A stretch of 33,742 nt of DNA, from positions 1 to 33,742 of the forward strand of contig JALEHU010000037.1 in assembly GCA_022770365.1 (NCBI GenBank). Direction: 5' to 3'. Source of the stretch: Blautia sp. (GTDB lineage: Bacteria; Bacillota; Clostridia; Lachnospirales; Lachnospiraceae). A program made the translations under genes and the position numbers. Below, one piece after another: positions 1 through 33,742 of this stretch. A model generated the notes under the pieces. That model was not told the DNA's origin, did no database searches, and was given only the letters and a program-made list of their open reading frames with translations. Numbering within the stretch: the first letter of the stretch is position 1; every line of letters begins with the position of its first letter.

Positions 1-1803
1 TCATACAGAGGTCGACCACATTCAACGATTTCGAGTCCAGTGTATTTTTCATTTCAACTCACGACCTCATACAGAGGTCGACACTTTTGTGGGAGCTTCA
101 TCCTGCTGTTCTTTGCATTTCAACTCACGACCTCATACAGAGGTCGACGAACGGTTGATACACCTTCGGCCGCTGAAGAACCATTTCAACTCACGACCTC
201 ATACAGAGGTCGACCTCCTGATACCCGCTTCATCATGTGTCTGATCATATTTCAACTCACGACCTCATACAGAGGTCGACAATTTTTTGCTGCATGATTC
301 CTCCTATGCCAGATCATTTCAACTCACGACCTCATACAGAGGTCGACTCGACCACAATGCCGTGTATATCAACAGTCTTGGATTTCAACTCACGACCTCA
401 TACAGAGGTCGACAATATACTGTTTTATTCTGTCCTTGCTGTTACTTATTTCAACTCACGACCTCATACAGAGGTCGACGTATCACTTCTTTTCTGGAGT
501 AGTTCCTCTTTGTTATTTCAACTCACGACCTCATACAGAGGTCGACATGCCGAAGGACCTGCATTGTATATCATGGCTAAATATTTCAACTCACGACCTC
601 ATACAGAGGTCGACAATTATCGTTAATCAAAACCGCTTCCCGCTAGAGATTTCAACTCACGACCTCATACAGAGGTCGACAGATTTCAGTTTCGTATATG
701 CTTCATCCTGACTCATTTCAACTCACGACCTCATACAGAGGTCGACATATTTCAACAAGAATCATTGATTCAGAAGGAAATTTCAACTCACGACCTCATA
801 CAGAGGTCGACCAGAAACAATTGCATGGATGCCATTACCGTGGATATTTCAACTCACGACCTCATACAGAGGTCGACAGATTCTGATCAAGTCGGAGCAC
901 ATATTCATGGAATTTCAACTCACGACCTCATACAGAGGTCGACGGTTGTTAGTGCTATAAATAATTTCTTTTTCATTGTATTTCAACTCACGACCTCATA
1001 CAGAGGTCGACCAATTCTCCGGAACCAAGATTATAACACCAACTAATTTCAACTCACGACCTCATACAGAGGTCGACAGCATCTGGTATACAACGCAACA
1101 CATGTGAAAGATATTTCAACTCACGACCTCATACAGAGGTCGACAATATGCCTCGTAGAGACCTTGAAGGCCTTGGAGATTTCAACTCACGACCTCATAC
1201 AGAGGTCGACCCTTGAAAAACCTGAAGAAGGCCCAGGAAGCAGCATTTCAACTCACGACCTCATACAGAGGTCGACGCAGGACGCAAGGAGGGATAACGA
1301 TGGCAACATATATTTCAACTCACGACCTCATACAGAGGTCGACAATCTATGTACAGGCACTGCCATGCCGAGTTTTATTTCAACTCACGACCTCATACAG
1401 AGGTCGACTACATGCTGAAAGGATTCCAAGAAGAATACAATATTTCAACTCACGACCTCATACAGAGGTCGACTGGGGATGCGAAATAAGTGTTGTATTC
1501 TCGTAATATTTCAACTCACGACCTCATACAGAGGTCGACAAATACATCCTCCTGGGAATATGTAACATCCTGGTATTTCAACTCACGACCTCATACAGAG
1601 GTCGACTTTTGCCTTGTCCCAAGGATCAAGTGTTTCTTCATTTCAACTCACGACCTCATACAGAGGTCGACATGAATTCAAAACCAAGTCAGCTTTCTTG
1701 TTTCATTTCAACTCACGACCTCATACAGAGGTCGACCGTCAGTCCTCCTTACTTCCTGCGAATCTCGGAATATTTCAACTCACGACCTCATACAGAGGTC
1801 GAC
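1..1803 (-). CRISPR. Type I-C CRISPR array (27 full repeats plus one cut by the window edge)
   Basis: A 32-bp direct repeat occurs 27 times in full (first full copy 51-82, last 1772-1803), plus a truncated copy at 1-16, so the array continues off the left edge. All copies read as identical. There are 27 unique spacers of 33-36 bp. Read on the minus strand, the repeat begins GTCGACCTC and ends GAGTTGAAAT, the ending typical of type I-C repeats. It folds into a 7-bp stem (CGACCTC/GAGGTCG, loop TGTAT) that leaves exactly 11 nt, TGAGTTGAAAT, after the stem, which matches the crRNA 5' handle left by Cas5d. The cas genes lie to the right and are also on the minus strand, so the leader end is at 1804 and the newest spacer is 1737-1771. 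The invariant repeats suggest a recently active array. Open reading frames across the array are repeat artefacts. Confidence 0.98.
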
Positions 1804-1970: not shown

Positions 1971-1971
1971 C
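1930..1971. repeat. Nested inverted repeat at the cas2/leader junction
   Basis: GTGCGAAT (1930-1937) is complementary to ATTCGCAC (1964-1971). Inside it lies the 13-bp palindrome TGTGAACTTCACA (1952-1964). The outer arm overlaps the first base of the cas2 stop codon. No U-tract follows on either strand, so it is not a classical terminator. It may separate cas mRNA from leader transcription or be a DNA site used in spacer acquisition. Confidence 0.5.
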
Positions 1972-2261
1972 TATAATATTAAAGTATCTGTCACATCAAA
2001 TCCTGGTTTTGCACCTATATGCTCCACTTTATTTTTATACTTATCTCCCAGATAATAAAACCTTAAACTATCCACCTCTTTATCAATAATTTTTTCCAAA
2101 ATATCTTTCACCTGTCTGCATTTAGTGGAATCCATATGACATTCAAATACAGAATTCTGTACTCTTTGCCCATAGTTCACACATTCCTTTGCAACTTTTC
2201 GAAGTCTCCTTTTCCCCGCATCGGTCTGGGTATTTACGTCATATGTAATTAATACAAGCAT
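1971..2261 (-). CDS. cas2: Cas2, CRISPR adaptation endoribonuclease-fold protein
   Basis: Cas2 forms the central dimer of the Cas1-Cas2 integrase that inserts new spacers at the leader end. The protein starts MLVLITYDVNT, a classic Cas2 first strand carrying the conserved Asp (D8), and continues with the RRLRKVAK and QNSVFEC elements of the ferredoxin-like fold. I chose the ATG at 2261 (96 aa), because the longer reading starts at a TTG inside the cas1 stop region and adds six residues not typical of the family. An AGGTG element seven bases upstream fits the ATG. The cas1 stop is 8 bp upstream, so translation is probably coupled. It is the last gene of the cas operon, directly next to the leader. 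Confidence 0.96.
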   Translation of the reverse strand: MLVLITYDVNTQTDAGKRRLRKVAKECVNYGQRVQNSVFECHMDSTKCRQVKDILEKIIDKEVDSLRFYYLGDKYKNKVEHIGAKPGFDVTDTLIL

Positions 2262-2269
2262 TTGATCAC

Positions 2270-3301
2270 CTACTTCCAAAAAAACGGCGGATATTCATCC
2301 AAATCACCTCGCAGATACCTTGCCAGAAGCATACATTGAACATAGGGAACCATTCCCCATTCCACCTTTTCATCAAGAAACGGATGCTTAATTACTTCCT
2401 GTTTTTTAGACTGCCATGCTGATAAGAAAGTTTTCCTTCCTTCATCATTTAAAATAACGGCCCCATTTTCCTTTTTTATAAAATGCTCCTTCTTGATTAT
2501 CCTTTTGTTAATCAGCGTCAATACAAACCGGTCCGCCATGATACTTCTGAATTCTTCCATGACATCTAATGCCAATGACATTCTTCCCGGACGATCCGTA
2601 TGGAGAAAACCCACATAAGGATCTAAGCCAACTGCCTCCAATGCAGAACCACACATTCCGGCTAATAACGAATATGCAAACGACAGCATGGCGTTTACGT
2701 TATCCATTGGAGGCCGTTTATTCCTGCCATGAAAATAAAAACTTTCTTTTTGCTGAAGAATCAACTGGTCAAATACCGAAAAATATACAGTTGCGGCTTC
2801 CCCTTCCAGTCCAAGCAATCTATCAGCGTTTTCACACTTTCTTATATCTGTCAGACTTTGCGCCAGACTACCTGATTTTTTCTTAATCAGATCGGCATCC
2901 AAACGCAGCGCATAATCTCTGGAAGCTCTTTCCAGAACCCATCTCGCATTATATACTTTTCCTAAAATAAAATTCCTGGCAATATGTATTCTTTGCTGCT
3001 CATTTTCACTGATTCGATACTGTTGCTTTCTGAGCATCACATTTCCTTTTACTTCACCTGTAATTCTGGCAAGAAAGCGGCCATTCCCGGACATAAAAGA
3101 CAAATCAATATTCCGCTGTGCACAGGCTCCCATCAAGGCCGGACTGGCTCCTGTATATCCGAATGTTACGATCGCCTGTAAATTATGAAGCGGAACTCTG
3201 CCAATCTCTTTCTGTTCTTCCAAAACAACAACATTCTCTCCCTCCAGAGACAAATATCTGTTTCCCGAAGTTACATACAATGTGTTTAAAAGTCTTTTCA
3301 T
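2270..3301 (-). CDS. cas1: Cas1, CRISPR integrase (type I-C)
   Basis: Cas1 is the metal-dependent integrase that joins prespacers to the repeat ends. Its 343 residues match the usual type I-C length. The expected metal ligands are visible: Glu166 in LLGLEGEAA, His234 in GFLHTDRPGR, and Asp246 with Glu249/250 in LALDVMEEFR. The N-terminal beta domain (about 1-80) and the helical catalytic domain are both present and uninterrupted. The ATG at 3301 overlaps the cas4 stop by 4 bp (ATGA), so cas4 and cas1 are translationally coupled. This fits the Cas4-Cas1 complex known for type I-C, where Cas4 selects PAM-containing prespacers. No sign of decay. Confidence 0.98.
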   Translation of the reverse strand: MKRLLNTLYVTSGNRYLSLEGENVVVLEEQKEIGRVPLHNLQAIVTFGYTGASPALMGACAQRNIDLSFMSGNGRFLARITGEVKGNVMLRKQQYRISENEQQRIHIARNFILGKVYNARWVLERASRDYALRLDADLIKKKSGSLAQSLTDIRKCENADRLLGLEGEAATVYFSVFDQLILQQKESFYFHGRNKRPPMDNVNAMLSFAYSLLAGMCGSALEAVGLDPYVGFLHTDRPGRMSLALDVMEEFRSIMADRFVLTLINKRIIKKEHFIKKENGAVILNDEGRKTFLSAWQSKKQEVIKHPFLDEKVEWGMVPYVQCMLLARYLRGDLDEYPPFFWK

Positions 3302-3969
3302 GTTTCTTCCTCTTCCGCAAGAATCTTTTCAATATATCCGGAAACAGATTTCTTTTTATTTAATACCGGAAGACAGATATCTTTCAGAGAACAGGCATTG
3401 CATTTCCTGCTGATTTTTACCTTAGGAGTATACTGCTGATCATAATACTTATGCATTTCGGTAAACATACTTTTTACTTTGCCTTTTATCTCATCAGTAA
3501 ATACCACCTTCATACGATGTCTTGTTTCTCCATAATAGATATATCCATATGGAATTATACAGCAAAGCATCTCCTCCAGGCATAATGCCTGCGCCGTCAC
3601 CTGTAAAATATCCACATCATTCTCTTTTGGCTTCCCTCTTTTATATTCGACAGGAACAACTGCATAACTGCCATCTCTTCCATCCAAAGATACTCCATTA
3701 GTACACCTGTGAAATTCAACTACATCACATTCACCACTCACGCCCATTTCTCTGGAATGGATCGGCATTGCCCGTACGATCAGCAAATCTCCTCTTTTTT
3801 CCCTGAGGCTGGCATCATGAGCATTTTCATGAAGAATTTTTCCTTCGACAGTCCTCACATTTTCCTGCCATTGCATTTCAATATAAGCCAACGCCCACTG
3901 TCTGCGGCAAAATGCAAAGTGCTGGATTCCGGATAATTGGAGAAATTCATCCTCATTATACAAAATCAA
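3298..3969 (-). CDS. cas4: Cas4, RecB-like Fe-S nuclease for prespacer processing
   Basis: Cas4 trims prespacers and ensures PAM-side orientation during adaptation. The four cluster cysteines are visible: C21 (FAFCRRQW) and C190, C193, C199 in KCNACSLKDIC. The RecB nuclease residues are also present: His48, Asp82, and E108/K110 in VPVEYKRG. At about 223 aa it has normal length. The frame has no ATG at its start. Either TTG at 3969 or the second TTG at 3963 initiates, and the GGAGG inside the end of cas7 lies 9 nt from the latter, which I prefer slightly (221 aa). The gene overlaps cas7 by 8-14 bp and cas1 by 4 bp. Confidence 0.96.
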   Translation of the reverse strand: MILYNEDEFLQLSGIQHFAFCRRQWALAYIEMQWQENVRTVEGKILHENAHDASLREKRGDLLIVRAMPIHSREMGVSGECDVVEFHRCTNGVSLDGRDGSYAVVPVEYKRGKPKENDVDILQVTAQALCLEEMLCCIIPYGYIYYGETRHRMKVVFTDEIKGKVKSMFTEMHKYYDQQYTPKVKISRKCNACSLKDICLPVLNKKKSVSGYIEKILAEEEET

Positions 3970-4813
3970 ATTCCTCCGGTTTCATACAGCCATCCACATT
4001 CCATTGGATCTCATAATCCTTAAATTCTGACGGATGTTCAATTTCTTTATTCATACAAAATCCGCGCTGAATCTTTCCACTGGAAATTGCCGGGGTTTTT
4101 TCATCATGCTGCCACCAGTACAATTTGCAGACTTCCATACTTCCTTCCGGTCTCGCTGAAGATGCATCATTTTCAAACAAGGTTTTCAATGCTTCTTTCA
4201 AAAGTTCTGCATCTTCCTGGCTGAATCCAGTTTTCTCAGCAAGCTGTACGTTCACACTTCCCATCACTTTATAAACAGCAAATCCGACTCTGTGTTTTGT
4301 CCCCATCGTATCAGATGCTTTACTTTCTTTCCCCGCTTCGCTGTTCACGCTTTTCGTAATCTGCATACTAATAATATCGATTGGAGATAAACTTACTGCC
4401 TGATGGATAGAAACAGGGCCTCTTACGCCAAACGAAACATGTTCTCCTTTAAAAGCGAAAACCTGACCAAAGGCTCTTACATCCAGCCATTCCTTACATG
4501 CAATCTGTGCACATTTATCACGATTTGCCTCCTTCTTATTATTCATCTCTTTCTTCAGTTCTGCACATCCTTCTGCCCGTTCTTTCAGACTGTTAAAAGA
4601 ATCATCTGAACGGTCATCTGACTGTACAAATATTTTCTGTCCCATATCCTGAAGGCGGTTCCTTATTTTTCTTTTGATACAAACATCGGAAATTTCTCCA
4701 TATCCATCCAGATTAATTCTCGGTCGATTACCATTTAACGGATCTCCATTTGGATTGGCATTGTGTACGCTGATAAATAAAGTAAAATCAATTTTTCCTT
4801 TTAACTCGCTCAT
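3956..4813 (-). CDS. cas7: Cas7 (Csd2), Cascade backbone subunit
   Basis: Cas7 polymerises along the spacer part of the crRNA to form the type I-C Cascade backbone. The Csd2 signature is visible at the N-terminus: HNANPNGDPLNGNRPR (residues 17-32). The 285-aa length is typical for the family. Its Shine-Dalgarno (GGAGGAA) lies within the last codons of cas8c, whose stop is only 3 bp away, and its own 3' end overlaps the cas4 start. Cas7 binding flips out every sixth crRNA base, which is relevant to the mismatch pattern of the pseudo-guide target near 10640. The frame is intact. Confidence 0.97.
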   Translation of the reverse strand: MSELKGKIDFTLFISVHNANPNGDPLNGNRPRINLDGYGEISDVCIKRKIRNRLQDMGQKIFVQSDDRSDDSFNSLKERAEGCAELKKEMNNKKEANRDKCAQIACKEWLDVRAFGQVFAFKGEHVSFGVRGPVSIHQAVSLSPIDIISMQITKSVNSEAGKESKASDTMGTKHRVGFAVYKVMGSVNVQLAEKTGFSQEDAELLKEALKTLFENDASSARPEGSMEVCKLYWWQHDEKTPAISSGKIQRGFCMNKEIEHPSEFKDYEIQWNVDGCMKPEEFDFV

Positions 4814-4816
4814 AAG

Positions 4817-5296
4817 TTATTCCTCCTCTTTATTATCCTGTCTATAATTTTTCAGATCATATGACTGGCTGTGAAATCCAAGTAAATATAAGCCATTTAA
4901 TTTGCGGTTATCCTTGTATTCCCCAATATTAAAAAGCTGATTTATTTCATCAAGCTGATTCTCATAATACCGTCTTTCCGGTGCATTTAACTTGTAAAAA
5001 TACGGCTGTATATTCTCCTCAATGATCTTCCATGTCTCAAATGGACGCTGAGAAAAATGATTCATATATCGTTTTGCATTGGTAGCTCTTGACCCGTCTT
5101 TATCTCTATCATAAGTACGATATTCTACCCGATCCGCAATTGCCAGCAGCCTTCCATATAAATAATCCCGTTCTCTGCAAGTTCTGTCCAGTGCCACTTT
5201 CCATTCCTCCTTTTTCGTTTCTTTCCTGTATTTTTTTGTCATAGAGCATGCCAATGTCAAAATCCGCTCCCAGTTTTTTCTGTCTTTATAAGCCAT
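4817..5296 (-). CDS. cas11c: Candidate internal Cas11c small subunit within cas8c
   Basis: Type I-C Cascade is known to contain Cas11c made from an internal start in cas8c. Here the in-frame candidates are the ATG of NPMAYKD (codon 482, 159 aa product), a TTG in RILTLACSM preceded at 6 nt by GGGAG (codon 494, 147 aa), and the ATG of SMTKKYRK (codon 500, 141 aa). The GGGAG-TTG pair has the best ribosome-binding site. The product would be the basic, helical C-terminal domain. The existence of a product is inferred from the family, and the exact start is uncertain. Confidence 0.45.
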   Translation of the reverse strand: MAYKDRKNWERILTLACSMTKKYRKETKKEEWKVALDRTCRERDYLYGRLLAIADRVEYRTYDRDKDGSRATNAKRYMNHFSQRPFETWKIIEENIQPYFYKLNAPERRYYENQLDEINQLFNIGEYKDNRKLNGLYLLGFHSQSYDLKNYRQDNKEEE

Positions 5297-6739
5297 CGGA
5301 TTAGATGCCTTATTAACTGCTCTGTCAACATAATCACGAGGGATTCTCCGAGCATCCCATATACACGGAATTAATCTTTTTGCCACTTCGGCATACATTT
5401 TTTTACTGTTTGCATCAGGAATCGTAAGCATCCCTTTACTTTCCACGCCAAAAAGAATATCTGCTGCATCTCTGACTCCAACCATCCCCCGGAATTGTGT
5501 CCGTTTTCCTTCCTTCCATTTTTCATGCACCCATTCACATTCTTCATGCCATTTTTTTATATTTGCAAGATATCTCGCCGACTCCAGTGTCTTCGTCTCA
5601 ACCAAAGACAATCTTCCGGTCGTTGCTGCATCTACCCCTAACAATATCATTGCAGATGTATTACTGATCTGTCTCCCGTATCCATTGAGGGCTTTATAAA
5701 ATGCTTCTGCTGTGATTCCATTTCCATCAGAAACATCATCCTCTTCATCCTCTTTCTGCCAGGAGAAACCTTCATTTTCATAATCTGTGATGATCATATC
5801 TGTGTCCGCATCCCATCTCGGCATTGCAAGTTTATTGGATTCCCAGGTTGCTATAGTAAGTGTGTCAAAGGATCTTCCCTGCTTTCTGATAATCCACTTT
5901 AAAGCATTATGCATTTTCTGAGAAGTCTCATTCCCGACAGCAAAAGCTTCTTCCTTGTCAGTAAATCTTCCCCGATATGTAAAGTTCTGACTGTCATTTG
6001 CAGAAATTAATTTTGCTCCATCGCCTTCATTTCGGATTTTTTTTGAGTGTAAATAAGTAATTGACTCCATATTACCGCTCAGATAACAAATCTCTTTGTT
6101 TTTTTCCAAAGATCTGCTATATTCAATGTAGCACTTCTGAAGAGACTGATCACTCCAGCATTTATCCTGAATGTACACATCATCTGAAAGAGCGCCCACA
6201 GGCCTCACGACAAACCTGACAAATGCCTTGGTCTGTGCAATTCCCTGAATCGTTTCTTTCTCATCCAGTCTTCCTGCCTCATTCAGCTTCAGAACTTTAT
6301 AGTCCAATAGATCCTTTATTAGTGTATTTTTCTGTAAATAACAATAGATCGCGCGGACTTTCTCATGAGAATAATCCGAGTTACACCACTTCTCCAGCTG
6401 TTTTATATACAGATCATGGCATACACCATCATCCTCACAATAATATTTATAATCCCCTGCAAGATATCTTAAATTATCACATAGCGGATGAGGTTCTTTA
6501 CCGGCAGTTCGGCTTCCTGATTTCTCAGTGATTGGAATAATAGTAAACTTTTCATTGTTATCTACAGGTTCAGCCCTCATAAACACACCATTCTCATCAA
6601 TCGTAACTTCTATCTGAGCTGTCACAGTTGTATGAAACGGCGGAAGCAACACATAAGGCATCTTATTTCTTTCTTCAACAATTCCTGCTTTGTCACTGTT
6701 TTTTTCATATAAATCAATAAGTTCTTCTGCCCAGTTCAC
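4817..6739 (-). CDS. cas8c: Cas8c (Csd1), large Cascade subunit
   Basis: Cas8c recognises the PAM (canonically TTC in type I-C) and recruits Cas3. At 640 aa it has full family length and begins like other Csd1 proteins (MNWAEELIDLYEKN). The start codon is GTG at 6739, overlapping the cas5 TGA stop (GTGA), with AGGAGGTGA just upstream. The C-terminal third contains the helical region from which type I-C systems also translate a separate Cas11c small subunit (see 4817-5296). I see no frameshift or truncation. Gene order and spacing place it between cas5 and cas7 in the same mRNA. Confidence 0.97.
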   Translation of the reverse strand: MNWAEELIDLYEKNSDKAGIVEERNKMPYVLLPPFHTTVTAQIEVTIDENGVFMRAEPVDNNEKFTIIPITEKSGSRTAGKEPHPLCDNLRYLAGDYKYYCEDDGVCHDLYIKQLEKWCNSDYSHEKVRAIYCYLQKNTLIKDLLDYKVLKLNEAGRLDEKETIQGIAQTKAFVRFVVRPVGALSDDVYIQDKCWSDQSLQKCYIEYSRSLEKNKEICYLSGNMESITYLHSKKIRNEGDGAKLISANDSQNFTYRGRFTDKEEAFAVGNETSQKMHNALKWIIRKQGRSFDTLTIATWESNKLAMPRWDADTDMIITDYENEGFSWQKEDEEDDVSDGNGITAEAFYKALNGYGRQISNTSAMILLGVDAATTGRLSLVETKTLESARYLANIKKWHEECEWVHEKWKEGKRTQFRGMVGVRDAADILFGVESKGMLTIPDANSKKMYAEVAKRLIPCIWDARRIPRDYVDRAVNKASNPMAYKDRKNWERILTLACSMTKKYRKETKKEEWKVALDRTCRERDYLYGRLLAIADRVEYRTYDRDKDGSRATNAKRYMNHFSQRPFETWKIIEENIQPYFYKLNAPERRYYENQLDEINQLFNIGEYKDNRKLNGLYLLGFHSQSYDLKNYRQDNKEEE

Positions 6740-7479
6740 TCACTCACCTCCTCTTCCGTAAATTCATTCAGACCGATAAAATTCCCATCTCCAAAAACTC
6801 GTCTTTTCATTTCCCTGATATGTCTTTTCTGTATACATTCTTCCGGTCTGACAAACTCAATAATTCCCCCTTTTTTCATAACCGGCTTCCAGAAACGTAC
6901 CGTCATTTTATTCTGGTCTTCCGGCAAAACTGCTTCATCTGCATAGGTTATTCCGTGATACATAAAACCGTATTCCACTTCTCCCGGCATTGAATCATAG
7001 TAACTTTCTCCTTCACCAAATATGCAGGGCTCCGCAAAGGCCTGACACTCTCTTGTCCCCAGGAAAATATCTCTGCGGCCACCTCTTTCTACCATTCTCT
7101 TTGCAATATTGTGATGTTTGTTTTCATTTCTGTCCTGCTCCAGTTCCGGATGATTCAGGTTAAATTCAAAATGGGCTCTGACCTGGTAACATACATCTTT
7201 CAAATATGTATAATATGCCAGCTCATTTCCGCCATTATAGGCAATCGGCCGTATTCCTTTGGTTTCCGTCTGAATGGGTTTCATAACACGCACTGCATCA
7301 ATAATCCAGATAATTGTAGGTTTCCAGTAAATACTTTCCACGATTCCTTTTAATGCTTCATACGTAGGAATATGGTAACTTGTCTTTTCACCGCCTACAC
7401 GCATAACCGGATCCGCAAACAATGCATACCCGCCGTAAACTTCAAATTCTATTGTATTTCTGTATTTTTTCAAAAACAT
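6736..7479 (-). CDS. cas5: Cas5d, crRNA-processing endoribonuclease
   Basis: In type I-C, which lacks Cas6, Cas5d cuts the repeat at the base of its hairpin and stays on the 11-nt 5' handle. The 247-aa protein starts with the RAMP-like strand EFEVYGGYALFADP and contains the I-C motifs SYHIPTYEALKGIVESIYWKP and KGIRPIAY. Candidate catalytic residues by family analogy are a tyrosine near 47-51 and Lys121/His122 (ENKHHN). The ATG at 7479 is preceded by GGAGGTGAA. The stop of cas3 lies 10 bp upstream, and the 3' end overlaps the GTG of cas8c by 4 bp. Confidence 0.97.
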   Translation of the reverse strand: MFLKKYRNTIEFEVYGGYALFADPVMRVGGEKTSYHIPTYEALKGIVESIYWKPTIIWIIDAVRVMKPIQTETKGIRPIAYNGGNELAYYTYLKDVCYQVRAHFEFNLNHPELEQDRNENKHHNIAKRMVERGGRRDIFLGTRECQAFAEPCIFGEGESYYDSMPGEVEYGFMYHGITYADEAVLPEDQNKMTVRFWKPVMKKGGIIEFVRPEECIQKRHIREMKRRVFGDGNFIGLNEFTEEEVSE

Positions 7480-7489
7480 TTCACCTCCG

Positions 7490-9970
7490 TCACATCATCA
7501 GAATATCCATCTTCGGATCGTCTGATACCCCGACTTCTTCATCATAATAACCCTTGCTCAGCACCAGTATTTCATTATCGCATATCTGATGTATGGCATT
7601 ATTTAATTTATCTCTTCTCCATTCCGAAATACCAACCGTATATCTTTGAAGCAATCTGATTTCCTTTCGCTTTTCATCTCCTTTTAAATGATTGCTTTCC
7701 AGTTTTTCAATGGAAGTCTTCGCCTTCTCATCATATGGAATTACAATACTGATCTTACTTTCATTGGAAATAACTTCAAACTCTTTTCCTGCTGTCTGGA
7801 ATGCCTGCGCAAATAACGGTCTTTTAGATTTTGGATTATGACTGCGTTTATACTGATTACGTCCTGTATTATCTTTCCCCAACAGATCTACTAAGGTTGT
7901 ATGGTAATTCTTCGTTGGATATTTTGCTTCCTCTGTGCTTAATTCATGATTGTAATTATCATAATACTTTTTTATTGCTTCCTGAGAATCCAGTGAACCA
8001 CCAGGATTATCCGGAATATTTCGATATTCATCCAGTACCTTTTGCAAGGCATTCTGCGCTGCTCTTATTTCCGGCAAGTGGCTCAGGTTTTCCGCTTCTT
8101 TAGACATCTGTACAATATAGACAGCACCAAGTCCTTCCAGTTCTTTGTGCCGATTGCATCTTCCCGCAGCCTGAATGATATTATCCAGGCCGGCCTTTGA
8201 ACGCACTACACATCCAAATGAAAAATTCACACCAGCTTCTACCAGCTGTGTACTGACACATATCACCTTTTTTCCAGTTTTAGCTTCCTTCAATGCAGCT
8301 TTAATTTGTTCCAGTTTATCCAGCTTATGCTCAGCGCACATATTATTACTTAAATGGAACAGCTGATATTCACTCTCATTACATTCTCCTTTGAGCGATA
8401 AAAACAGATTGCGGGCACAGGTCGTAGTATTCACAATGATTAATATGCTTTTAAACACTTCTGTTTTATCCAGAACAAAATCCCTTAGATCGGTTATCTC
8501 CATCCCGCCAGGGCAAAGACCGGTCTTATCGATAATTTCTGTCCTTTTAAATGTATCGGCATATTTTTTTATTTCACCTGTCATCTCCATACATTCACAT
8601 ATATTATTTTCTGCGCGAGGTGCCAGAGTAGGCTGTGTAGCTGAACATAAGATTACGGTTATATTACAGAACACCGTCAGAAAGTTCACTGCCAGATTAA
8701 ATAGTTCTGTACATTTATCAGGGACAGCCTGTACTTCATCAAAAATAATGATGCTGTTGCACAGTGTATGCATTCTTCTGATACAGCTTTTTTGTTCTGA
8801 AAACAGCGTGTTTAATATCTGAACTGCCGTAGTAACAATAATCGGAGAATCCCATGTCTCTGTTAATTCCCTGTATTTTCTTTCCTTCTTTTCATCTTCG
8901 CAGATCACATTACAATGGTGTTCCAAAACTATCTCCGGATTTCCCACTGCTCTCCGGATTTCCAGAGCATTTTGTTCCAATATTGAATTATAGGGGGCGA
9001 CATAAATAATATGCTGTTTCTTCTGCTCTATCGCATGATGAAGTGCGAAACGCAGACTGCTGAGAGTTTTTCCTGCACCTGTAGGAACTGTCAGCCTGTA
9101 AAGTCTTTGCTCGTCTTTTGCCGCTGCCATACATAAATCTGAAATTTGCTGTCGATATTCATTTAACAGATTTCCGTTTGATGGATCTTTCCGAACCTGC
9201 GGCAGGAAACAGTTTTCAAAATAATACGTACTGTCTTTCCAGACCTGCTGCGTTTTTTCTGCAGAAATTCTCTCCGGCAAAGAAATACCTTGCGAAAAAC
9301 AGGATGTATCTGTCCAATCGCTGTCAATTAACATGGATATCAGCAAACGTATATACATACCCATGAAAAAATCACCATTTCCGCACTTACGGTTATGTAA
9401 TTGATCCTTTTTCATGAAAGAGCCGATTTGGTTACTGATATACTCAAAATCTCCCTTTGCAGCTGTACATTTTTCTTCCAATGCATTTTTATCAAACATC
9501 CGGAAAAATCTCTGTTTGATCAATTCATCGTCAATACTTTTTTCACTTCGTCTCTCTTCTAAGGTCCGTCCTGTCTGTAAATCGATACAATCCTGCAATC
9601 CATGATGGGAATACACTGCAATCCCGATTATTTCTGAAAACATTCTATTTTCCGCCAGTTCATTGGCAATACGTCCTCCTGCAGTAGAATGATCCAGATT
9701 ATGTTTATGTACATTTTCTCCATATTTCAGAATTGCCCGAAAGTCATCCTGATTCTCCTCACCTGCTTTTCCGGCATCATGAAGAATTCCCGTAAGGTGA
9801 CACATATTTTTCAGTTCCGGAAGCGGACATATTTTTTCCGCATATTCCGCAACATTTTTAAGATGTTCCTTCAGTAACTGTTTTCTCCCGGTTTCATAAA
9901 TGACATGTGCCAGATATTCCTCTTTTAACGAAGTGCCTTCATTATAATTCAAACTGTAATTGTCTTCCAT
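7490..9970 (-). CDS. cas3: Cas3, HD nuclease-helicase
   Basis: Cas3 is recruited to the Cascade R-loop and unwinds and degrades target DNA. The 826-aa protein carries an N-terminal HD nuclease (HD pair H64-D65 in GILHDAGK, further His at YSHHGL) and a superfamily 2 helicase: Walker A PTGAGKT at 296-302, DEVQ at 411-414, SAT at 443-445, and motif VSTQLVEAGVNFSFG with the QAAGRCNR arginine motif in the second RecA domain. All motifs are intact, so the effector should be active. An ATG at 9970 is preceded by GAGGTG. It is the first gene of the operon. Its promoter lies at 10034-10062. Confidence 0.98.
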   Translation of the reverse strand: MEDNYSLNYNEGTSLKEEYLAHVIYETGRKQLLKEHLKNVAEYAEKICPLPELKNMCHLTGILHDAGKAGEENQDDFRAILKYGENVHKHNLDHSTAGGRIANELAENRMFSEIIGIAVYSHHGLQDCIDLQTGRTLEERRSEKSIDDELIKQRFFRMFDKNALEEKCTAAKGDFEYISNQIGSFMKKDQLHNRKCGNGDFFMGMYIRLLISMLIDSDWTDTSCFSQGISLPERISAEKTQQVWKDSTYYFENCFLPQVRKDPSNGNLLNEYRQQISDLCMAAAKDEQRLYRLTVPTGAGKTLSSLRFALHHAIEQKKQHIIYVAPYNSILEQNALEIRRAVGNPEIVLEHHCNVICEDEKKERKYRELTETWDSPIIVTTAVQILNTLFSEQKSCIRRMHTLCNSIIIFDEVQAVPDKCTELFNLAVNFLTVFCNITVILCSATQPTLAPRAENNICECMEMTGEIKKYADTFKRTEIIDKTGLCPGGMEITDLRDFVLDKTEVFKSILIIVNTTTCARNLFLSLKGECNESEYQLFHLSNNMCAEHKLDKLEQIKAALKEAKTGKKVICVSTQLVEAGVNFSFGCVVRSKAGLDNIIQAAGRCNRHKELEGLGAVYIVQMSKEAENLSHLPEIRAAQNALQKVLDEYRNIPDNPGGSLDSQEAIKKYYDNYNHELSTEEAKYPTKNYHTTLVDLLGKDNTGRNQYKRSHNPKSKRPLFAQAFQTAGKEFEVISNESKISIVIPYDEKAKTSIEKLESNHLKGDEKRKEIRLLQRYTVGISEWRRDKLNNAIHQICDNEILVLSKGYYDEEVGVSDDPKMDILMM

Positions 9971-10028: not shown

Positions 10029-10062
10029 GATAAATTTTATCAGACAAAAGCCAGTTTCACAA
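10029..10062 (-). promoter_or_regulatory. cas operon promoter with palindromic operator-like site
   Basis: On the minus strand TTGTGA (10062-10057) and TAAAAT (10039-10034) are 17 bp apart. They give a start near 10027 and a leader of about 57 nt before cas3. A 13-bp perfect palindrome, GATAAATTTTATC (10029-10041), covers the -10 box and could be a repressor site. The -35 box sits in one arm of an 11-bp inverted repeat (10059-10069 with 10100-10110) that may end transcription coming from the upstream gene. Inferred from sequence only. Confidence 0.6.
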
Positions 10063-10125: not shown

Positions 10126-10395
10126 TTACTCTCTTGGCAATTTCAGCAAATTATCAGCTGAAGTATGATTCGCCTCCGAACGAACGTACTTCTCACCTGT
10201 AGAACTTACTGCCGGAATTAAAAATGGATAGGGCGGAATATTTACCTGAATTGATTTGGGATATCGCTTAAGAAAGTCATATACCTCTGCTTTCTTCCAG
10301 TATGAATTTGTGGCATCCATATAAATAGAGTCAATGTCACATACATCCTGAGAATAGGCACAGCAGTGCTTCATTTTGATTTTTATTGCTTTCAT
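10126..10395 (-). CDS. Small DUF3892-like protein upstream of cas3
   Basis: This 89-aa protein ends KYVRSEANHTSADNLLKLPRE, matching the closing motif of the DUF3892 family (Y-[VI]-R-[ST], DNL, LP), short proteins of unknown function. The N-terminus is basic (MKAIKIKMKH). No membrane segment or signal peptide is visible. An excellent Shine-Dalgarno (AAAGGAGG, 8 nt before ATG) shows it is translated. It lies on the same strand as the cas operon, 155 bp upstream of cas3, and downstream of the structured RNA at 10456-10600, so it could be cotranscribed with either. Whether it has any CRISPR role is unknown; the position may be fortuitous. The family call rests on motif memory. Confidence 0.65.
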   Translation of the reverse strand: MKAIKIKMKHCCAYSQDVCDIDSIYMDATNSYWKKAEVYDFLKRYPKSIQVNIPPYPFLIPAVSSTGEKYVRSEANHTSADNLLKLPRE

Positions 10396-10474: not shown

Positions 10475-10503
10475 TTTACAAATTAAGAAATTATATGTAG
10501 AAT
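10475..10503 (+). promoter_or_regulatory. Plus-strand promoter for an antisense RNA
   Basis: TTTACA (10475-10480) and TAGAAT (10498-10503) are separated by 17 bp, each with one mismatch to consensus. The start would be near 10510, 88 nt before the strong terminator at 10561-10598. It points opposite to the promoter at 10607-10635. Confidence 0.6.
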
Positions 10504-10509
10504 AAAAGT

Positions 10510-10598
10510 GGTTGGGTTTTATTCAAATTATTATATTCTTAATTTGAATAGGCTTTCTGTAAGATCACAATGTACGCCAATACATTGTGATCTTTTTT
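10510..10598 (+). ncRNA. Small antisense RNA (about 88 nt)
   Basis: It is bounded by its own promoter (10475-10503) and a strong intrinsic terminator. It would fold into a 10-bp hairpin, ATTCAAATTA (10521-10530) with TAATTTGAAT (10540-10549), followed by the terminator hairpin. Its whole length is complementary to the minus-strand RNA from 10600, so the two form a convergent sense/antisense pair such as a type I toxin-antitoxin or a copy-control-like regulator. No ORF of note. Inferred from promoter and terminator architecture. Confidence 0.5.
10561..10598 (+). terminator. Strong intrinsic terminator
   Basis: AAGATCACAATGTA (10561-10574) pairs perfectly over 14 bp with TACATTGTGATCTT (10581-10594), loop CGCCAA. 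The U-tract runs to 10598 on the plus strand. On the minus strand the same hairpin has no U-tract. Confidence 0.85.
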
Positions 10599-10606
10599 CT
10601 ATATTG

Positions 10607-10635
10607 AATATATCACTACTTCTTGTTCGTGTCAA
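10607..10635 (-). promoter_or_regulatory. Strong minus-strand promoter
   Basis: A perfect -35 TTGACA (10635-10630) and a -10 TATATT (10612-10607) lie exactly 17 bp apart, predicting a start at about 10600. It is one of the best consensus promoters in the window. Its -35 box lies inside the 10621-10655 site that resembles the pseudo-spacer. Confidence 0.75.
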
Positions 10636-10655
10636 TATTAAATATATATTAATGT
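10621..10655 (-). promoter_or_regulatory. Putative Cascade target of the crRNA-like guide
   Basis: Read on the minus strand from 10655, the first 16 bases equal the first 16 bases of the pseudo-spacer (10741 downward), except at positions 6 and 12. Beyond position 16 the match is poor. Every sixth crRNA base is flipped out and unpaired in Cascade, so this is a functional-looking 14/14 seed. The adjacent PAM-side triplet is TTT, one base off the canonical I-C TTC. The site covers the -35 box at 10630-10635. The DNA is AT-rich, so chance similarity is possible. Confidence 0.5.
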
Positions 10656-10681
10656 AAAATAATTATATGGTTATTAATACT

Positions 10682-10753
10682 GCGGTTAGACATTTATTTC
10701 TTCTAACCGCATCAATATATAAAGAAAATTTATATCAATGTCTTTCAACTCAC
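10682..10753 (-). ncRNA. crRNA-like RNA: lone degenerate repeat handle, pseudo-spacer, 3' hairpin (CreA-like candidate)
   Basis: CGTGAGTTGAAA (10754-10743) is identical to the 3' part of the array repeat. With the next base it reproduces 10 of 11 handle residues. It is the only such sequence I found outside the array. The promoter at 10759-10788 predicts a start at about 10753, so the RNA would begin with the handle and need no Cas5d cut. A 31-nt pseudo-spacer (10741-10711) follows, then a 9-bp hairpin GCGGTTAGA/TCTAACCGC (10710-10682) in the place of the normal 3' repeat hairpin. The overall size and order copy a mature I-C crRNA. It may guide Cascade to the neighbouring promoter. It may also be a decayed mini-array. 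Confidence 0.6.
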
Positions 10754-10758
10754 GGACA

Positions 10759-10788
10759 TTTATACCAATATATCCGACAACAGGTAAA
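10759..10788 (-). promoter_or_regulatory. Promoter of the crRNA-like RNA
   Basis: On the minus strand TTTACC (10788-10783), an 18-bp spacer and TATAAA (10764-10759) with an extended -10 element (TGG before it) place the start at 10751-10753, at the base of the repeat handle. Consensus inference. Confidence 0.6.
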
Positions 10789-13063: not shown

Positions 13064-13140
13064 ATGATACAAGGGTCATAAGGTCATGTGTTTCATGCTT
13101 GCATAAAAAAACATGACTTTTGGAACCCGCAAAAACATGA
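13064..13140 (+). repeat. Dispersed hairpin repeat, copy 1
   Basis: This 77-bp element begins ATGATACAAGGGTC and ends CGCAAAAACATGA. It is nearly identical to 33603-33678, with about four differences. It folds into nested stems: GTCATGT with ACATGAC and, inside it, TTTCATGC with GCATGAAA (weakened here by one substitution). An outer GGGTC pairs with the closing ACCC region. A short frame, MIQGSKGHVFHACMKKHDFG in copy 2, is broken here by a TAA after codon 5, so the element is kept as DNA/RNA structure rather than as protein. Probably a high-copy non-autonomous element. Confidence 0.8.
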
Positions 13141-33602: not shown

Positions 33603-33678
33603 ATGATACAAGGGTCAAAAGGTCATGTGTTTCATGCTTGCATGAAAAAACATGACTTTGGGACCCGCAAAAACATGA
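33603..33678 (+). repeat. Dispersed hairpin repeat, copy 2
   Basis: A 76-bp element almost identical to 13064-13140. Here the inner stem TTTCATGC/GCATGAAA and the outer GGGTC/GACCC are perfect, so this copy is closer to the consensus. It contains a short frame, MIQGSKGHVFHACMKKHDFG, closed by a TAG 8 codons later. Beyond it (33679-33742) another frame stays open to the window edge and reads VARIGRISNVFRISGAQSAE, which I remember as a recurrent sequence in Blautia-type genomes. The repeat unit may therefore be longer than 76 bp. Confidence 0.8.
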
Positions 33679-33742
33679 GAAAGTAGCCCGAATAGGGCGG
33701 ATTTCGAATGTTTTTAGGATTTCGGGAGCACAAAGTGCGGAG

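What the first reader, a model, noticed from the sequence alone, without database searches (positions are those of the whole stretch)
10682..10788. A stand-alone crRNA mimic with its own promoter upstream of the type I-C cas operon
Seen: a 12-nt exact match to the 3' end of the array repeat (10743-10754) lies alone about 770 bp upstream of cas3. A TTTACC-18-TATAAA promoter with extended -10 puts the transcription start right at the crRNA handle. A 31-nt pseudo-spacer follows, then a 9-bp hairpin where a crRNA has its 3' repeat hairpin. Known: CreA antitoxins and crRNA-like autorepressor guides in other type I systems have degenerate repeats next to cas genes. Inference: this is such a guide for type I-C Cascade, and it may mature without Cas5d cleavage because it already starts at the handle, a feature I do not know from described examples.
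Basis: partly seen in the sequence, partly recalled or inferred. Interest (0 to 1): 0.92.

Follow-up and report, generated by a model that had tools for sequence, protein, structure and literature searches.

The report
CRISPR guide RNA repressing neighbouring gene
Just upstream of a type I-C CRISPR-Cas operon lies a tiny gene for a look-alike CRISPR guide RNA whose guide part matches the promoter of the next small gene, so the immune complex probably keeps that gene switched off unless the complex is lost or blocked.

Summary
On the minus strand, 10754-10743 matches the array repeat's last 12 nt bar its final base, the only such match in the window outside the array, and a 10-bp hairpin follows. 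Guide positions 1-16 match 10655-10640, next to a TTT PAM, with mismatches only at 6 and 12, bases flipped out in type I Cascade. Pattern searches of the held 3.0-Mb genome hit only this site; 0 of 20,000 random guides did as well. The target abuts a TTGACA-17-TATATT promoter leading into a DUF3892 gene; cas3 appears to have its own.

The arrangement recurs: 12 of 80 I-C loci, window included (0.93 expected), and 2 of 20 held-out loci (0.055 expected). Other guides target promoters before cas3 or before small ORFs, one Hol_Tox-like.

I read it as a CreA/CreR-kind guide for cas6-less type I-C Cascade, most likely repressing DUF3892. Repression, processing and DUF3892's effect are untested. Novelty: a variant of a known kind.

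The parts
10742..10778 (-). Degenerate repeat (psiR1) with 7-bp stem 10776-10770 / 10759-10753 (one G-U) and 10-nt loop
   Evidence: stem ends exactly where the 11-nt handle starts, as in the array repeat; 5' GTC retained
10742..10752 (-). 11-nt 5' handle TGAGTTGAAAG (repeat has T at the last position); the 12-nt identity is 10754-10743
   Evidence: the 11-nt handle length of type I-C crRNA is from a passage of PMC5965380
10759..10788 (-). Candidate promoter of the guide gene: TTTACC-18-TATAAA, extended -10, start at the handle
   Evidence: best-scoring site for this guide; not listed by the stricter scan
10712..10741 (-). Guide (pseudo-spacer) ACATTGATATAAATTT...
10681..10711 (-). 10-bp hairpin with 11-nt loop in the place of the 3' repeat hairpin (psiR2-like; no sequence resemblance to the repeat seen)
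10640..10658 (-). Target: PAM TTT (10658-10656) plus matched protospacer positions 1-16 (10655-10640)
   Evidence: mismatches only at positions 6 and 12
10607..10635 (-). Promoter TTGACA-17-TATATT next to the target; a 33-nt protospacer would cover its -35 box
   Evidence: 11 of 12 matches, highest-scoring promoter-like site of the 6 found in the region
10126..10395 (-). DUF3892 gene (89 aa), ribosome-binding site AAGGAGG
   Evidence: PF13031 E 1.3e-7, 32.4 bits against cut-off 22.3
10475..10597 (+). Candidate antisense RNA over the DUF3892 leader: promoter TTTACA-17-TAGAAT (10475-10503), terminator 10561-10594
   Evidence: the same layout is predicted in L045, but not in L103 by the scan
10034..10062 (-). 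cas3's own promoter-like site TTGTGA-17-TAAAAT (TG)
   Evidence: 9 of 12 matches; same-spaced site in L045, L046 and L088, 3 of 11 relatives compared
1971..9970 (-). Type I-C cas operon: cas3, cas5c, cas8c, cas7, cas4, cas1, cas2
   Evidence: TIGR01876, TIGR01863, TIGR02589 and TIGR03640 above cut-off
1..1803 (-). CRISPR array, 32-nt repeat

Best explanation
This is a crRNA-like guide gene of the CreA/CreR kind for type I-C Cascade. A short transcript carries the I-C 5' handle, a guide of about 30 nt and a 3' hairpin. Cascade loaded with it binds a TTT-flanked site from 10655 downward through guide positions 1-5, 7-11 and 13-16, and so covers the -35 box of the promoter at 10635-10607. The match is partial, so I infer that, as reported for CreA, Cascade represses rather than destroys its target, and that it holds down the DUF3892 transcription unit just upstream of cas3. 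When Cascade is lost or blocked by an anti-CRISPR, DUF3892 would be switched on, which would guard the CRISPR system if DUF3892 slows growth or acts in defence. Shown from sequence: handle, repeat stem, guide, hairpin, PAM-flanked match, promoter-like site, gene order and recurrence in other I-C loci. Inferred: transcription, loading, repression, and what DUF3892 does, which is the weakest step.
For: Only match to the repeat 3' end in the window outside the array. Guide-target match: 0 of 20,000 random guides equal it; patterns for PAM plus match hit only this site in the held genome, reversed-pattern controls 0. The target lies beside the highest-scoring promoter-like site of the region, which precedes DUF3892. 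Recurrence: 12 of 80 I-C loci, window included, against 0.93 expected; 2 of 20 held-out loci against 0.055. In 13 pairs found with no guide position favoured, 18 of 26 mismatches fall at positions 6 and 12 (P 3e-11 if mismatches are independent), the flipped-out positions (passages of PMC5965380 and PMC11127173). Features not used to select: repeat stem in 8 of 12 (background 9.4%), hairpin in 9 of 12 (background 2.0%). The PAM's third base is a pyrimidine in 14 of 14 (background 59%, P 6e-4). Two relatives target promoters of separate small ORFs: Coprococcus catus L046, a 29-aa ORF, matched at guide positions 1-17; Merdimonas L049, a Hol_Tox-like 27-aa peptide (E 8e-5, 22.9 bits against cut-off 23.3), matched at 16 of 17.
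Against: No expression or binding data. L045, with the same DUF3892 gene before cas3 (60% identity), shows no guide in the roughly 835 nt available. 86 of 100 I-C loci show no pair by this rule, among them close relatives L044, L047, L082 and L105. No minus-strand terminator separates DUF3892 from cas3. Promoter calls are consensus matches, no more frequent here than in shuffles (6 found, 6.5 expected). DUF3892 has no match in PADLOC or NCBIfam and nothing shows that it is toxic; the paper that discusses the domain casts it as a sensor fused to another effector domain, which is absent here. 8 of 26 mismatches lie at other positions. The TTT PAM is not the commonest in the set, which is TTC. 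Thresholds were set on loci that are also in the 80.
Confidence: 0.68

Rival explanations
1. CreR reading: the same guide mainly damps the cas genes. The target promoter would start one long transcript, DUF3892 then cas3 and the rest, so Cascade limits its own supply; DUF3892 is a passenger.
For: No terminator predicted between DUF3892 and cas3 on the minus strand. In 7 of the 13 other loci with a guide (L069, L089, L114, L118, L121, L154, L156) the target lies just upstream of cas3 on the cas3 strand; in L053 and L123 it lies near cas3 on the other strand. CreR in types I-B, I-E and V-A is described (PMC13131331 passage).
Against: cas3 has its own promoter-like site at 10062-10034, with the same spacing in L045, L046 and L088 (3 of 11 relatives compared). 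In L046 and L049 the target sits upstream of a separate small ORF.
Confidence: 0.22
2. A decayed mini-array: it once guided Cascade but is no longer transcribed or loaded.
For: The repeat is strongly degenerate, the 3' unit has no repeat-like sequence, and close relatives lack it.
Against: Handle, both stems and 14 paired guide positions are all intact, and degeneration is normal for such guides (PMC9458426 passages).
Confidence: 0.08
3. Anti-CRISPR decoy RNA (Racr/solitary repeat unit) from a mobile element.
For: A Racr is reported for type I-C (PMC10651486 passages), and DUF3892 genes occur on plasmids.
Against: The repeat is far below the 90% identity used to call such units. It lies beside the cas operon and has a guide matching a host promoter.
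Confidence: 0.02
4. Chance resemblance in AT-rich sequence.
For: The guide, target and flanks are AT-rich, and promoter-like sites are as common in shuffles (6 found against 6.5).
Confidence: 0.02

Closest known systems
CreTA (CRISPR-regulated toxin-antitoxin; haloarchaeal I-B, Acinetobacter I-F)
   Same: Degenerate repeat next to cas genes; pseudo-spacer partly matching a PAM-flanked site in a nearby promoter, at positions 1-5 and 7-11 in Halobacterium hubeiense (PMC8501985, PMC10097628; passages)
   Different: Type I-C has no cas6 (Cas5d processes, passage); the regulated gene here encodes an 89-aa DUF3892 protein, not a known RNA toxin; the 3' unit is a long hairpin without repeat-like sequence
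CrePA (protein toxin held off by CreA and Cascade)
   Same: A protein gene beside the cas operon under a crRNA-like guide (PMC12737573 passages)
   Different: CreP is described there as typically carrying a KilA-N domain; DUF3892 does not, and its toxicity is unknown
CreR (cas-regulating RNA)
   Same: crRNA-like guide partly matching a promoter in the cas locus (PMC12737573 and PMC13131331 passages)
   Different: The target promoter here leads into DUF3892; the passage names I-B, I-E and V-A, not I-C. Seven other loci found here look CreR-like
Mini-arrays with spacers matching cas or cargo-gene promoters (a 2023 Nucleic Acids Research survey)
   Same: As I recall it, many type I loci carry such elements, some aimed at cargo such as toxin-antitoxin genes
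   Different: Recalled, not read (not held under the DOI I tried); whether it lists type I-C cases like this I could not check

Membership tests
CreA (antitoxin guide of CreTA/CrePA) | Repeat-like psiR1 with an intact handle beside cas genes | tested here: met
CreA (antitoxin guide of CreTA/CrePA) | Pseudo-spacer positions 1-5 and 7-11 match a PAM-flanked nearby site | tested here: met
   PAM TTT
CreA (antitoxin guide of CreTA/CrePA) | Second repeat-like unit (psiR2), seen in most | tested here: inconclusive
   10-bp hairpin in the right place without repeat-like sequence
CreA (antitoxin guide of CreTA/CrePA) | Target is the promoter of a toxin | tested here: inconclusive
   Promoter-like site before DUF3892; toxicity not testable here
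CreA (antitoxin guide of CreTA/CrePA) | Cascade-dependent repression | not testable with these tools
   Needs a reporter or RNA-seq
CrePA with KilA-N toxin | KilA-N protein | tested here: not met
   DUF3892 is the only family above its cut-off
CreR | Target is the cas operon promoter | tested here: inconclusive
   Target promoter precedes DUF3892; cas3 has its own promoter-like site, but no terminator between
Racr / solitary repeat unit | At least 90% identity to a CRISPR repeat | tested here: not met
   Longest unbroken identity 12 nt of 32; criterion from PMC10651486
CRISPR array unit | Near-identical repeats flanking a spacer | tested here: not met

The most novel reading that the evidence does not exclude
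Cas6-less type I-C systems recruit antisense-RNA-controlled small genes (here a DUF3892 protein, in Merdimonas a Hol_Tox-like peptide) as guarded effectors held off by Cascade. In this window the guide RNA is born at its handle by transcription from a promoter inside its own degenerate repeat, so it loads without Cas5d cleavage and its 5' end is a triphosphate.
Probability: 0.13. Interest if true: 0.85.

Novelty: new variant of a known kind. Interest (0 to 1): 0.62.

Why it matters
In the passages I read, guides of this kind are described for types I-B, I-E, I-F and V-A, and a 2025 review asks whether other types have CreTA-like guards. The type I-C loci here, which rely on Cas5d rather than Cas6, suggest yes, with at least two outputs: cas promoters and small accessory genes. 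If DUF3892 is the guarded gene, that mobile, uncharacterised family gains a testable role: a protein released when Cascade fails. The search rule used (handle plus skip-six guide match) may find strongly degenerate guides that repeat-identity searches miss; I did not compare the two.

Tried and rejected
Rejected: chance; a Racr decoy; the idea that the guide aims at cas3's own promoter (the window's one pair is at the DUF3892 promoter). Rfam gave nothing above gathering score in the region, and its weak hits (rliA, Gut-1) I treat as chance. The DUF3892 scan of viral contigs found no relative; the phage records gave one. The DUF3892 leader structure was not tested by covariation, with three divergent leaders only. 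A DNA search of 64 same-genus genomes (own included) with the region matched the window's own alone. The order-wide DUF3892 search matched 2 of 392 genomes, one of them the window's own.

Rows dropped. One search set: of 99 entries (58 + 40 + window), L098 had no cas7 match, L091, L104 and L107 were exact duplicates, 10 had no cas3 found and 5 had too little upstream DNA, leaving 80; near-duplicates may remain. One search set: of 26, two duplicates, three without cas3 and one short upstream left 20. L154 and L156 are from one genus, so they are not independent. One search took 14 stretches that I chose from the hits. The stem and hairpin tests used only the 12 guides. Looser pairs not counted in the 14: L058, L061 and L115, L167 and L175, L067.

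Full report
Observation. The window carries a type I-C system read on the minus strand: array (1-1803), cas2, cas1, cas4, cas7, cas8c, cas5c, cas3. About 784 nt upstream of cas3, CGTGAGTTGAAA (10754-10743) equals the array repeat's 3' end except for its final base. It is the only stretch of 10 nt or more shared with the repeat in window 1831-33742.

First, the handle ends a degenerate but complete repeat, GT-CGGATAT-loop-ATGTCCG-TGAGTTGAAAG (10778-10742), whose stem stops exactly at the 11-nt handle. Second, the guide has a target. Its positions 1-16 match 10655-10640 on the same strand after a TTT PAM, with mismatches only at 6 and 12. Those are bases flipped out of pairing in type I Cascade (passage of PMC5965380). 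The same pairing logic, 1-5 and 7-11 beside a PAM, is reported for a haloarchaeal CreA (passage of PMC8501985). The target abuts TTGACA-17-TATATT (10635-10607), the highest-scoring of 6 promoter-like sites found in the region; shuffles give 6.5 on average, so such sites are weak evidence one by one.

Chance. Of 20,000 guides drawn from an order-2 Markov model of the local sequence, none scored as well, and of 2,172 real 30-mers of the region one reached 14 or more. Patterns for PAM plus match hit only this site in the 3.0-Mb, 85%-complete genome, with reversed-pattern controls at 0. The RNA fold is moderately stable (z -2.20, 6 of 200 shuffles as good).

Relatives. I collected I-C loci by Cas3, Cas8c and Cas7 searches (fetched) and searched up to 3 kb upstream of cas3 for a handle-like word (8 of 11 or more) followed by a guide matching a [TC]TN-flanked site within 1.2 kb while skipping every sixth base. 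In 80 loci, 12 of 681 candidates reached a prefix of 14, against 0.93 expected from 405,415 non-handle positions: L046, L049, L053, L063, L069, L089, L090, L114, L118, L121, L123 and the window. In 20 further loci, fetched after the rule was fixed, 2 of 142 candidates did, against 0.055 expected (L154 and L156, one genus). With a rule that favours no guide position (1.5 kb, handle 9 of 11, at most 3 mismatches in 16), 13 pairs gave 26 mismatches: 7 at position 6, 11 at position 12, 8 elsewhere (P 3e-11 if independent). Three features agree that were not used for selection, or only in part. A stem directly 5' of the handle scores at least 5 in 8 of 12, against 9.4% of 9,600 random positions. 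A strong hairpin starting 22-39 nt into the guide scores at least 12 in 9 of 12, against 2.0% of 3,600. The PAM's third base, left free in the search, is a pyrimidine in 14 of 14, TTC in 8.

Against this, 86 of the 100 loci show no such pair by the rule, including close relatives L044, L047, L082 and L105. L045, which shares the DUF3892 gene, shows none in its roughly 835 nt. These guides, if real, turn over quickly.

What is repressed. In the window the promoter leads through a leader that folds strongly on its own (no shuffle control) to an 89-aa DUF3892 gene (PF13031). cas3 has its own promoter-like site TTGTGA-17-TAAAAT (10062-10034), with the same spacing in L045, L046 and L088, 3 of 11 relatives compared. 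Other loci differ (by inspection). In L069, L089, L114, L118 and L121, and in L154 and L156, the target lies just upstream of cas3 on its strand; in L053 and L123 it is near cas3 on the other strand. In L046 it precedes a 29-aa ORF with a good ribosome-binding site and no Pfam match, and in L049 a 27-aa Hol_Tox-like peptide (E 8e-5, slightly under Pfam's cut-off). L090 and L061 have other small ORFs in between, and L063 an ORF that by eye resembles a Cas8c C-terminal piece (not searched). I favour repression of DUF3892 over cas autorepression for the window, but no terminator separates the two genes and the CreR reading stays open.

DUF3892. One passage of PMC12419801 describes its fold as like dsRNA-binding and ribosome-hibernation domains. 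It concerns proteins in which DUF3892 is fused to a Min-Wnt effector, and proposes that they sense viral RNA or altered ribosomes and trigger dormancy or suicide through the Min-Wnt domain. The gene here is DUF3892 alone, so a growth effect of its own is my guess. Homologues sit on plasmids of Enterococcus and other lactic acid bacteria (37 records), including a 3.2-kb plasmid with rep, DUF3892 and mobV. In the window and L045 a candidate antisense RNA ends over the sense leader; L103 was not supported by the scan. L049's peptide gene also has an opposing promoter-like site, though no terminator was found.

The 'starts at the handle' idea. Scoring promoters upstream of 17 guides, only the window's best site starts at the handle; in 15 of the other 16 the best starts 25 nt or more upstream and in L053 14 nt upstream. 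The retained stem argues for Cas5d processing, the promoter for birth at the handle; the sequence cannot decide.

Known or new. CreA, CreR, CrePA and Racr RNAs are described (passages seen; no paper was read whole). For CreA and CreR those passages name I-B, I-E, I-F and V-A; PMC10097628 says earlier creTA genes surround cas6, which I-C lacks. The listings of my ten paper searches showed no type I-C CreA or CreR report, but most subscription papers are not held, and a 2023 survey of mini-arrays that I recall was not found. I rate this a new variant of a known kind.

Noticed in passing
L049:4300-4888: Merdimonas I-C locus: a Hol_Tox-like 27-aa peptide gene with an opposing promoter-like site and a crRNA-like guide matching its promoter region at 16 of 17 positions, just upstream of cas3. 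Probably the clearest guarded-toxin case.
   Followed up: partly
L046:4435-4840: Coprococcus catus I-C locus: guide with a 17-nt unbroken match beside the promoter of a 29-aa ORF whose end overlaps the cas3 promoter-like site.
   Followed up: partly
L058 and L061, about 270-400 nt upstream of cas3: Two Lysinibacillus species share a divergently oriented guide-like element; a 60-aa ORF before cas3 in L061 looks, by eye, decayed in L058.
   Followed up: partly
L063, about 1.1 kb upstream of cas3: The target lies just upstream of an ORF that by eye looks like a free-standing Cas8c C-terminal part; the guide resembles those of L154 and L156.
   Followed up: no
window 10475-10597, + strand: Candidate antisense RNA over the DUF3892 leader, with a 14-bp terminator hairpin; similar in L045.
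   Followed up: partly
window 33604-33742 and 13064-13134: Clostridiales-1 RNA (Rfam RF01699) at the window end; a 71-nt stretch 90% alike to its start lies at 13064.
   Followed up: no
L045:1-850: DUF3892 gene before cas3 as in the window, yet no guide found in the available upstream DNA.
   Followed up: partly
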